Positions 20,854 to 64,000 of a DNA stretch of 64,000 nucleotides are shown here, one piece after another. Every line of letters begins with the position of its first letter. The stretch's first letter is position 1. Location: contig JAJCXO010000263.1 in assembly GCA_029263395.1 (NCBI GenBank), forward strand, positions 124,001-188,000. Reading direction: 5' to 3'. The notes beneath the pieces were generated by a model. It did no database searches. It saw only the letters and a list, made by a program, of their open reading frames with translations, and was not told where the DNA came from. The position numbers were made by a program, and so were the translations under genes. This DNA is from Acidobacteriota bacterium. GTDB taxonomy: Bacteria; Acidobacteriota; Thermoanaerobaculia; Multivoradales; J023.

Positions 20854-20888
20854 ACCGGAACTCCGATCCCCTGGCTACCAGAGCCGAA

Positions 20889-21199
20889 ACCAACACCCAG
20901 GGTTTACCCCCTGGGCTACCGTGTTCCGCCCTACGGGCTCTGATCTTGGACTCCGAACTCTTGAGCCCGGAGGGCGCCATCCAGTTGCCTCGGGTGTCAA
21001 CCCGTGGCGGGGTGGGCGATGATCAACCCGGCATCCACACCACAACCAACACCCAGGGTTTACCCCCTGGGCTACCGTGTTCCGCCCTACGGGCTCTGAT
21101 CTTGGACTCCAAACTCTTGAGCCCGGAGGGCGCCATCCAGTTGCCTCGGGTGTCAACCCGTGGCGGCGCTGGCAATGATCAACCGGCATCCACACCACA
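20889..21199. repeat. Tandem duplication of a 156-bp non-coding unit
   Basis: Two nearly identical copies (about 20889-21044 and 21045-21199) starting ACCAACACCCAGGGTTTACC, with a few substitutions and a one-base deletion. Inside each unit are inverted segments CCAGGG..CCCTGG and GGGCTC..GAGCCC. A partial third start (CACAACCAACTTCGC) follows. Open frames through the unit have low-complexity translations and are probably spurious. It resembles a dispersed intergenic repeat rather than an insertion sequence, as no transposase is present. Confidence 0.85.
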
Positions 21200-21296
21200 A
21201 CCAACTTCGCGACAAAACGATACCGCCCAACTGTGCGGGCGTGCGGTCTAACGGGAAACGAAACCCCTGGCGGTAACACAGTACCCATCACCACAC

Positions 21297-25948: not shown

Positions 25949-26112
25949 GCTCCGCGTGGACAAATTTAGCTCTCTGGGTTGAAAAGCCTAAATCTGTCGC
26001 AAGAAATAGACTTTTTATCCCTGGAGGGTTCTGAAGTGGCCGAGATCTCGAATCAGCTACCCGGTTTCAGGCCTTACACACACTTTTGTACCTCATAAGC
26101 GCCAGATCGGCC

Positions 26113-26280
26113 GATGGCCGATCGATTTTCGCGTGGCACAGCGATCAGCCATGGGATGGCCGATCAATTTTCGCGTGGCACAGCAATTAGCCATTGGATG
26201 GCCGATCGATTTTAGCGTGGCACAGCGATCAGCCATTGGATGGCCGATCGATTTTTGCGTGGCACAGCGATCAGCCATCG
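26113..26280. repeat. 42-bp tandem repeat, four copies (array A)
   Basis: Four units of GATGGCCGATCGATTTTCGC plus GTGGCACAGCGATCAGCCAT plus two bases, each 42 bp, with only a few substitutions. At each unit boundary GATCAGCCAT-TGG-ATGGCCGATC forms a palindrome, centred near 26154, 26196 and 26238. The unit continues in phase into array B. Open frames on both strands exist because 42 is divisible by three, but they carry no ribosome-binding site and are not considered genes. Confidence 0.9.
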
Positions 26281-26495
26281 TCGATTCTGACGGTTTGTGG
26301 CGTTTTGAATCGTCAGAATCTCAACTATTCTGACGATTCATTACACTTGAACCGTCAGACTTTCATTCGTTCTGACGGTTTGAAGCGTTTGAATCATCAG
26401 AATTTTGAGTTTTCTGATGATTCAACGGCGTTGAATCGTCATTTTTTTCAAAATTCTGACAGTTCGCAGGTCATTGAATCGTCAGAATTCTTGAA
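26281..26495. repeat. Palindromes at 42-bp period with varying arms (array B)
   Basis: Stem-loops centred at about 26323 (GAATCGTCAGAAT/ATTCTGACGATTC), 26365 (AACCGTCAGA/TCTGACGGTT), 26407 (GAATCATCAGAA/TTCTGATGATTC) and a weaker one near 26449, followed by a lone left arm at 26475. Spacing is 42 bp and continues the phase of array A. Arms change in a compensated way between stems. It lies between the 3' ends of two convergent transcription units, and no protein is encoded. Confidence 0.85.
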
Positions 26496-61777: not shown

Positions 61778-62719
61778 GTGTTGTTTTCTCTAGTTTTGGT
61801 CCTCGCCGGTATCGGCCTGCTGTATGCGGGTGGCGAGTTGCTGGTGGACAACTCGATCAAGTTGGCCCGCAACTTCGGGGTCAGCTCGCTGGTGATCGGC
61901 TTGACCGTCGTTGCCTTCGCCACCTCCGCGCCAGAGTTGGCCACCACCCTCTCCGCCGCCTACAGAGGCTCGCCCGAGATGGCGATCGCCAACGTATTAG
62001 GCTCCAACGTTGCCAATGTCGGGCTGATCCTCGGCATCTCGGCGCTAATGGTGCCGCTCACCGTGACGGTACGCTTCATCCGTCGCGAAGTCGCCTTCAT
62101 GGTGTTCGTCACCATCCTGCTGTATCCCTTGATGGCCACTGGCCTTTACATCGGCCGGTTCGAAGGTCTCCTGTTGTTCGTGATGTTGGTGCTCTTCATC
62201 GCGACCCAGCTCCGCGAGACCTCCACTCAAGGCGATAGTGATCCAACGCCCACCATCGAACATGTTCCCGCCACCCGCTTGATCATCCTGATCGCCGTTG
62301 GGGTTGGCCTGTTGGTGGGTGGTGCCCAAGCTTTGGTTCACGGCGCCAGCACCATCGCCAGCGCCATGGGAGTGTCCGAGCGAGTGATCGGAGCCACCCT
62401 GGTTGCTCTCGGCACCAGCCTGCCAGAGCTGGCAGCCGCCATCGTCGCGGCGCGCCGAAAAGAAGGTGATCTGGTGCTGGGTAACGTCATCGGCTCCAAC
62501 ATTTTCAACATCCTGTGCATCCTCGGCATCACCGCCACCGTCCACCCAATCCAGATCAGCGCCAAGTCCCTAGCGGTCGACTTCTGGGTTGTCCTCGGCA
62601 TCAGCCTGTTGCTGTTGGTTGCCCTGGTGATCAATCGTCGCCTGGTCCGAGTCGAAGGTGCGGTGCTACTCGCCGCCTACTTCGGGTATACCGTCTTTCT
62701 TTTCCTCGGATCGAGTTAG
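61778..62719 (+). CDS. Calcium/sodium antiporter (YrbG/CaCA family)
   Basis: 313 aa from a GTG at 61778. Ten membrane helices in two inverted halves, with both alpha-repeat signatures: LTVVAFATSAPELATTLSAA with GSNVANVGLILGIS, and ATLVALGTSLPELAAAIVAA with GSNIFNILCILGI. The family exchanges Ca2+ for Na+ or H+. Near-complete length for the family. Confidence 0.92.
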   Translation: MLFSLVLVLAGIGLLYAGGELLVDNSIKLARNFGVSSLVIGLTVVAFATSAPELATTLSAAYRGSPEMAIANVLGSNVANVGLILGISALMVPLTVTVRFIRREVAFMVFVTILLYPLMATGLYIGRFEGLLLFVMLVLFIATQLRETSTQGDSDPTPTIEHVPATRLIILIAVGVGLLVGGAQALVHGASTIASAMGVSERVIGATLVALGTSLPELAAAIVAARRKEGDLVLGNVIGSNIFNILCILGITATVHPIQISAKSLAVDFWVVLGISLLLLVALVINRRLVRVEGAVLLAAYFGYTVFLFLGSS

Positions 62720-62812
62720 ATCTACCTCGCGCCGGCGGGACATCACATCTCCAACCTTCCAACTCCCACCCTGGGCCCACCAGGAGACGTGTTGTGACGA
62801 CCGAGGGCGTTT

Positions 62813-63376
62813 CCTCAATGGTGAGGACGCCGTTTTCAGATTCTAAAGTCGCATCCTCAATGGTGAGGAACGCTATTTGGAAGTCCGATTTCGGCTTCCT
62901 CAGCGGTGAGGAAGGCTTTCCGAGCCGGACAAATTGTCTCCTTCGGAGGAAATGTGAACGACCCAACGGTCTCGGGTCGCTCGCCTCACGGCCAAGACGG
63001 TCACCGGAGCGTCGCGGGTCGCTGTCCTCACCAGTGAGGGCGCCTCCTGAGACCCCGGCCAAGGGTCCCTCAGCGCTGAGGAGGGGTCCCGGAGTCTCTG
63101 GGATACCCGTCTCAGTGGTGAGGACACAGCTCGCGCCAAGCAGAAGGTCCACCTCAGTGGTGAGGCAAGCGACCCGACGTTCTCAGGTCGCTCGCCTGAC
63201 CGTGAGGAAGGTCACCCGAGCGTCTCGGGTTGCTGTCCTAACCGCGGGGGAATGCAACTGAGCGTCTTGGGTCACCGTCCTCACCGCTGACGGCGTGGCC
63301 CAAGACCGAGACGACGGCTCATTAGCGGTGAAGCCGTGGCCTGGAGCTTCTGAAATGACCGTCCTCAGCGGTGAGA
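62813..63376. repeat. Array C: CCTCA..TGAGG palindromes at 42-bp period
   Basis: Core TCCTCA-NNNN-TGAGGA (loops ATGG, GCGG, CCAG, GCGC, GTGG) centred at about 62820, 62862, 62904, 62944, a degenerate one near 62988, 63032, 63074, 63116, 63158, 63201, 63243, 63285, 63327 and 63369: 14 positions at 42 +/- 1 bp. About half-way between them, a second palindrome ACCCGAGCGTCTCGGGT or a variant recurs (centres about 62969, 63011, 63095, 63180, 63222, 63264). No protein or ribosome-binding site. Not a CRISPR. Confidence 0.85.
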
Positions 63377-63795: not shown

Positions 63796-64000
63796 GGGTC
63801 GATCCCCGCGGGTACGGGGAAACCCCGTCAGCTTCAGGGTCGATCCAGGTCAGCACGGGTCGATCCCCGCGGGTACGGGGAAACCGAGAACCTTTTGAGC
63901 TTCGTCGAAGTACCCGTGGGTCGATCCCCGCGGGTACGGGGAAACCGGAAAGTAACGCTTAGCCAGCCCAACCCATTGAGGTCGATCCCCGCGGGTACGG
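63796..64000 (+). CRISPR. Type I-E-like CRISPR array, first units (continues past the edge)
   Basis: Repeat GGGTCGATCCCCGCGGGTAC plus GGGGAAACC, 29 bp, starting at 63796, 63857, 63918 and 63979 (the last cut by the edge and with A in place of one G at its start). Period is exactly 61 bp, so spacers are 32 bp. Repeat shape (CCCCGCGGGTACGGGG hairpin ending in AAACC) and 29+32 geometry are those of type I-E. Three full spacers are visible at 63825-63856, 63886-63917 and 63947-63978. The first contains GGGTCGATCC, identical to the first 10 bases of the repeat. No cas genes seen. Confidence 0.95.

What the first reader, a model, noticed from the sequence alone, without database searches (positions are those of the whole stretch)
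62813..63376. Fourteen palindromes phase-locked at 42 bp, with a second palindrome set half a period away
The TCCTCA/TGAGGA cores recur at 42 +/- 1 bp for about 560 bp while loops and intervening bases vary. ACCCGA..TCGGGT palindromes fall near the midpoints, so symmetric elements occur about every 21 bp (two helical turns) and same-type elements every 42 bp (about four turns). Such regularity without sequence identity of the units implies selection on spacing, or copying by a mechanism that preserves it. Possible roles are a binding platform on one DNA face, a multi-hairpin RNA or a structural element. I do not recognise the class.
Basis: seen in the sequence. Interest (0 to 1): 0.85.

Follow-up and report, generated by a model that had tools for sequence, protein, structure and literature searches.

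The report
Dispersed helically phased palindrome arrays
This bacterium's chromosome carries many short non-coding stretches built from mirror-image DNA sites repeated every two turns of the double helix; several unrelated sequences obey the same spacing, which suggests docking platforms for unknown DNA-binding proteins rather than ordinary repeats.

Summary
Window 62805-63376 is a non-coding array of about 14 imperfect CCTCA-N4-TGAGG palindromes. With no spacing imposed, 56 of 59 successive intervals at eight related loci lie within 2 bp of a multiple of 42.3 bp. The second palindrome set is present but weaker than described. The array is a discrete ~571-bp dispersed element: five near-complete copies in this 10.7-Mb genome, one in a sister species, with homology stopping at the array ends. 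It is one of at least 13 sequence-unrelated families sharing the geometry: period 42 (or 84) bp, dyad centres every 21 bp. About 14 arrays occur per 1164 kb sampled. Hairpin pairing is not what is conserved: no within-palindrome covariation and both strands fold alike. Site sequence is: in a second family TGA and TT are invariant in all 64 half-sites, and here cores outlast spacers. Best reading: a lattice of alternating duplex-DNA sites on one helical face, a docking platform for unidentified proteins, carried on an interspersed element. REP/BIME-like, neutral-satellite and RNA readings are rivals. Binder and function are not shown.

The parts
62805..63376 (.). F1 lattice element: ~14 phased palindromes, period 42-43 bp, dispersed ~571-bp repeat
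62813..62826 (.). lattice palindrome 1, CCTCAATGGTGAGG
62855..62868 (.). lattice palindrome 2, CCTCAATGGTGAGG
62898..62911 (.). lattice palindrome 3, CCTCAGCGGTGAGG (8-bp arms with flanks)
62939..62950 (.). lattice position 4, variant palindrome TCCTTCGGAGGA
62959..62979 (.). second-type palindrome CGACCC..GGGTCG
63026..63039 (.). lattice palindrome 6, CCTCACCAGTGAGG
63068..63081 (.). lattice palindrome 7, CCTCAGCGCTGAGG
63110..63123 (.). lattice palindrome 8, TCTCAGTGGTGAGG
63152..63165 (.). lattice palindrome 9, CCTCAGTGGTGAGG
63168..63192 (.). second-type palindrome AGCGACC..GGTCGCT
63214..63230 (.). second-type palindrome ACCCGA-GCGTC-TCGGGT
63279..63292 (.). lattice palindrome 12, CCTCACCGCTGACG
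63363..63376 (.). lattice palindrome 14, CCTCAGCGGTGAGA, at the right end of the element
26105..26281 (.). same class, other sequence: F3 array, four 42-bp units
26281..26495 (.). same class, other sequence: F2 array, ten alternating TTCTGACGATTCA half-sites spaced 20-22 bp

Best explanation
The array is one copy of an interspersed, non-coding chromosomal element whose body is a lattice of alternately inverted ~21-bp (two-turn) duplex-DNA sites, so a dyad falls every 21 bp and all sites face the same side of the helix. Shown: the geometry, its recurrence in many sequence-unrelated families, dispersal as a unit, base-specific conservation in half-sites, and no detectable selection on arm-to-arm pairing. 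Inferred: sequence-specific proteins (a different one, or a different specificity, per family) bind cooperatively along one face and make a long nucleoprotein platform, most simply for bridging, looping or marking chromosomal DNA, and copies spread by an unidentified mobilisation process.
For: Spacing: 56 of 59 unconstrained F1 intervals on the 42.3-bp lattice. F2 half-sites alternate with steps of 20-21 and 22 bp at all 7 loci, with TGA and TT invariant in 64 of 64 and the remaining variation mostly transitions. Dyad symmetry at p<=0.03 in at least one array of 11 of 13 families; not F7 or F8. Period 42 stands out: 6 arrays of period 42 against none of 31-41 or 43-59 in 484 kb, and 14 arrays of period 42 or 83/84 in 1164 kb overall. 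No within-palindrome covariation: 1572 matches observed, 1570.8 expected over 25 arrays; in six F1 homologs 84.3% of cells paired against 84.9% shuffled, and 4 double changes against 4.5. Among five F1 homologs cores are 0.79 identical, nucleotides 8-13 from the centre 0.65 (p=0.0009 for core against all other columns). Indels are mostly 1 nt, so not coding. No preference for flanking-gene orientation (9 ++, 7 +-, 5 --, 5 -+).
Against: No binder identified; no common flanking gene family among 54 flanking proteins. One protein cannot read 13 different sequences, so many binders or specificities must be assumed. The covariation tests have limited power (few loci, and many pairs never vary). Independent decay of units copied from one palindromic ancestor also gives no covariation. 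For F2, one of the two pairing registers shows a weak signal (p=0.034). Families are lineage-limited: F1 found in 3 of 40 genomes searched, the genome itself included and one of them a 29-bp hit; F3+F2 in 2 of 40, itself included.
Confidence: 0.42

Rival explanations
1. REP/BIME-like elements: palindromes read as single-stranded hairpins and mobilised by IS200/RAYT-type (Y1) transposases; the arrays are alternating-orientation REP clusters.
For: The genome has 18 Y1_Tnp matches but one DDE_Tnp_1 match. Arrays of period 41-43 or 82-85 are dense near Y1 genes: 12 in 142.5 kb, against 16 in 1164 kb overall (2 of these in coding sequence, L101) and 4 in 150.7 kb around integrases. All 6 long RAYT-like proteins tested match NCBIfam REP_Tyr_transpos at E 2e-12 to 9e-11, below its bit-score cut-off. 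BIMEs are described as alternating, regularly spaced REPs (abstract of PMC2817692). F1 is dispersed as a unit.
Against: No GTAG tag (2 of 13 consensus units) and no excess of CGTC (7 of 13, background 0.43). Arm pairing not conserved. Three of the five IS200-like Y1 genes match their own up- and downstream flanks (L161, L162, L163), i.e. have other flanking repeats. No Y1 homolog by phmmer in the 1350 kb that holds most arrays. The integrase control is itself about twice the background.
Confidence: 0.27
2. Neutral or selfish satellite-like repeats: palindromic units amplified by slippage or template switching at a preferred period, then copied around the genome and decaying, with no cellular role.
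For: Several arrays are near-identical tandem units (F3, F4, F7). F1 copies are 67-90% identical at unrelated places. No orientation or gene preference. Limited to the genus so far.
Against: Position-specific conservation: 5 of 13 half-site positions invariant in 64 sites while others vary up to 34%; F1 cores above spacers. A shared 42-bp period across unrelated families needs a special copying mechanism.
Confidence: 0.21
3. A long multi-hairpin non-coding RNA.
For: Both strands fold far better than shuffles (z -7.6 and -8.1).
Against: Equal stability on both strands is what DNA palindromes give. RNAalifold covariation term is unfavourable (+5.76). No excess compensatory pairs. No Rfam match at gathering score and only two weak, implausible hits with relaxed limits.
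Confidence: 0.07
4. A protein-coding repeat (42 nt = 14 codons).
For: Open frames cross parts of several arrays; some 21-bp arrays in other phyla read as heptads (L073).
Against: 71 of 98 pairwise indels among F1 copies are 1 nt; every frame of the finding has a stop.
Confidence: 0.02

Closest known systems
BIME / REP / REPIN clusters with RAYT (TnpA-REP)
   Same: Intergenic, palindromic, alternating orientation, dispersed; arrays enriched near Y1 transposase genes here. Ordered tandem REP arrays, and REPIN clusters beside RAYT genes, are reported in P. fluorescens SBW25 (PMC3116915, passages read).
   Different: 21-bp pitch instead of the 71-112 bp spacings reported there; no GTAG/CGTC signature; pairing not conserved; many unrelated sequences share one geometry.
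BOX elements of Streptococcus pneumoniae (boxA-boxB(n)-boxC)
   Same: Small interspersed element with an internal tandem module (PMC3049150, passages read).
   Different: boxB copy number varies between copies, whereas F1 keeps about 14 units in a set order; no boxA/boxC-like end modules seen; many sequence families here.
Plasmid replication iterons
   Same: Sites spaced about two helical turns apart on one face (recalled).
   Different: Iterons are direct repeats next to a rep gene on plasmids (recalled); these are alternating inverted sites at chromosomal loci, with no match in 72,556 plasmid records.
CRISPR arrays
   Same: Regular repeats; a genuine-looking CRISPR begins 422 bp downstream (window 63798 on).
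   Different: No variable spacers between constant repeats; period 42 with two dyads, versus period 61 in the neighbouring CRISPR.

Membership tests
REP/BIME | GTAG or CGTC tag at one end of the palindrome | tested here: not met
   GTAG/CTAC in 2 of 13 consensus units; CGTC/GACG in 7 of 13 against background 0.43, tag position not checked
REP/BIME | single-strand hairpin with conserved pairing | tested here: not met
   no within-palindrome covariation; weak signal in one F2 register
REP/BIME | cognate RAYT flanked by the same repeat | tested here: inconclusive
   arrays enriched near Y1 genes, but the same array type lies near different Y1 types and some IS200-like Y1 genes have other flanking repeats
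REP/BIME | alternating orientation, intergenic | tested here: met
MITE | terminal inverted repeats and target-site duplication | tested here: inconclusive
   sharp ends, no duplication seen by eye in the flanks; no empty site compared
CRISPR | constant repeats separated by diverse spacers | tested here: not met
   units conserved on a 42-bp lattice throughout
Rfam RNA family | match to a curated covariance model | tested here: not met
   0 matches at gathering in the window; two weak chance-like hits
Phased protein-binding array | sites at integral helical turns | tested here: met
   42.0-42.3-bp period, dyads every 21 bp
Phased protein-binding array | base-specific conservation independent of arm pairing | tested here: met
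Phased protein-binding array | a bound protein | not testable with these tools
   no binding data

The most novel reading that the evidence does not exclude
A new class of bacterial chromosomal element in which geometry, not sequence, is the conserved feature: unrelated sequences organised as dyad lattices of two-turn pitch, forming one-face nucleoprotein filaments that organise the chromosome, possibly with counterparts in other phyla, where 21-bp palindrome arrays were found.
Probability: 0.3. Interest if true: 0.88.

Novelty: new variant of a known kind. Interest (0 to 1): 0.64.

Why it matters
If the arrays are protein-docking lattices, they would be a sequence-flexible, helix-phased chromosomal scaffold in bacteria, with a design that can be tested by shifting the phase by half a turn. 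If instead they are mobile repeats, they show a transposition or amplification route that fixes a 42-bp period regardless of sequence. Either way one genome offers over a dozen sequence families obeying one geometry, a natural experiment on what is being selected.

Tried and rejected
Terminator or promoter role: flanking genes occur in all orientations (9 ++, 7 +-, 5 --, 5 -+ of 26 arrays). Shared partner gene: 54 flanking proteins (of 102 listed) gave no family in more than 3. Plasmid or phage origin: no match to F1 in 72,556 plasmid or 50,697 phage records; two arrays from other phyla, L073 and L063, also had no plasmid match. Genome-wide strict-stem dyad autocorrelation (stem >=7): only a modest excess at 41-42 bp (12.5 against about 4), because the palindromes are imperfect. 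RNA: disfavoured. CGTC tag: no excess. DDE transposase as control family: only one copy, so integrases were used.

Rows left out before counts: two L101 hits (period 84, coding by my reading) count among the 16 but not among my 14; period-126 rows were set aside as TPR-coding. F4_L143 was mis-registered and stays in that table. F1_C176, F3_C49, F3_C84, F4_L143, F7, F8 and L122 were but not. C176 was left out as a near-duplicate of the window copy.

Literature: searches found no description of 42-bp or 21-bp phased dyad arrays; subscription papers are mostly not held. Passages only were read of PMC3733652, PMC3116915, PMC6006769, PMC3049150, PMC8266576 and PMC5294841.

Full report
Observation. 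The stretch 62805-63376 lies between a Na/Ca exchanger gene (61778-62719) and a CRISPR array that starts near 63798. Its best self-match lag is 42 bp. Searching CCTCA-N4-TGAGG with up to two mismatches and no spacing rule gives nine hits here, at intervals of 42-43 bp or multiples; over eight related loci 56 of 59 intervals are within 2 bp of a multiple of 42.3. The second palindrome type is real but only some midpoints carry a clear one. The array is non-coding: every frame has a stop, and 71 of 98 pairwise indels among homologs are single nucleotides.

A dispersed element. A 591-base query found five near-complete copies in the 10.68-Mb genome including itself (C263, C176, C5, C218, C18) plus fragments. 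Of 40 genomes searched, 3 matched at E<=0.001: the genome itself, one congener with a 75% copy over 522 bases, and one order-level genome with a 29-base hit. Homology ends at the array edges (62805 and 63376); the flanks of up to about 1 kb are unrelated. The copies keep about 14 lattice units in the same order at 67-90% identity.

One of many families. A sequence-blind lag scan of 484 kb gave six arrays of period 42 and none of 31-41 or 43-59. A further 400 kb and 280 kb brought the total to 14 arrays of period 42 or 83/84 in 1164 kb, or about 130 per genome by extrapolation; the set includes the window and a neighbouring stretch that were not chosen at random. The arrays fall into at least 13 sequence families. 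Families recur at separate places: F2 with F3 side by side at several loci, F4 at two, F6 at three or more. Consensus units are dyad-symmetric at p<=0.03 in at least one array of 11 of 13 families; F7 and F8 are not. Lattice plus dyad means alternating inverted sites of about 21 bp, two helical turns.

What is conserved. In F2, 64 on-lattice half-sites at seven loci keep TGA and TT without exception, while other positions vary, mostly by transitions; steps alternate 20-21 and 22 bp. Between five F1 homologs identity is 0.79 at 3-7 nt from the palindrome centre and 0.65 at 8-13 nt; core against all other columns p=0.0009. By contrast the arms of one palindrome are no more complementary to each other than to arms of other units (1572 observed, 1570.8 expected, z=0.05, 25 arrays). 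In six F1 homologs the pairing statistics equal shuffled ones (84.3% against 84.9%). One F2 register shows a weak excess (p=0.034), the other none (p=0.87). Both strands fold equally well, RNAalifold's covariation term is unfavourable, and Rfam has nothing convincing. This points to recognition of duplex sequence at fixed helical phase rather than hairpins, with the caveat that few independent variable pairs are available.

Links to mobility. The genome has 18 Y1 transposase matches, several RAYT-like. Around them, arrays of period 41-43 or 82-85 number 12 in 142.5 kb, against 16 in 1164 kb overall and 4 in 150.7 kb near integrases. So arrays and Y1 genes share neighbourhoods. The REP signature is absent, three of five IS200-like Y1 genes carry other flanking repeats, and 1350 kb holding most arrays has no Y1 homolog by phmmer. 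I keep the REP-like reading as the main rival.

Distribution. Lattices are abundant only in this genome in what I sampled, with single family members in its congener: one 43-bp array in 321 kb of a same-family genome and no convincing non-coding one in 220 kb of four order-level genomes. F3+F2 was found in 2 of 40 genomes, itself and the congener. A spacing-biased pattern scan of other bacteria returned 40 stretches; some (Lysobacter, Rhodanobacter, an acidobacterium, a Bacillaceae) look by eye like non-coding 21-bp palindrome lattices, while others look like coding heptad repeats. This is a lead, not a claim.

Verdict. A real, unusual feature: a new variant among bacterial interspersed palindromic repeats, most likely a helix-phased protein-docking lattice. 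Binder and function are unknown. I found no printed description in seven searches.

Noticed in passing
window 63798-64000 and onward (L015): CRISPR array with repeat GTCGATCCCCGCGGGTACGGGGAAACC, period 61 bp, starting 422 bp right of the lattice element.
   Followed up: no
L063:4640-4935, L078:1335-1620, L096:943-1545, L082:150-500, L092:211-440: 21-bp palindrome lattices in Lysobacter, Rhodanobacter, an acidobacterium, a Bacillaceae and an unnamed MAG, with non-codon spacing in some (lags 64/85/106).
   Followed up: partly
L073:4300-4720, L086:240-510: Flavobacterium and Kaistella arrays on an exact 21-bp lattice that also read as long open heptad frames (NLKFEV-like); coding or not is unclear.
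   Followed up: no
L169, L170, L172, L173, L174, L176, L177: Seven close paralogs of a RAYT-like Y1 protein (MSRGPRYIPPGW...) with a conserved ~200-bp upstream region.
   Followed up: partly
L161-L165 flanks of Y1 genes: Hairpin repeats of the CCCAGGGT..ACCCTGGG kind lie beside several IS200-like Y1 genes; these look like their true REP-type repeats.
   Followed up: partly
window 20888-21205: Two near-identical 156-bp tandem units containing CCCAGGGT/CCCCTGGG-type hairpins.
   Followed up: no
L122:17665-17850: A 43-bp-period array in a same-family genome, with GTTTGCAAAC and GGTTGGGGC-TT-GCCCCAACC palindromes.
   Followed up: partly
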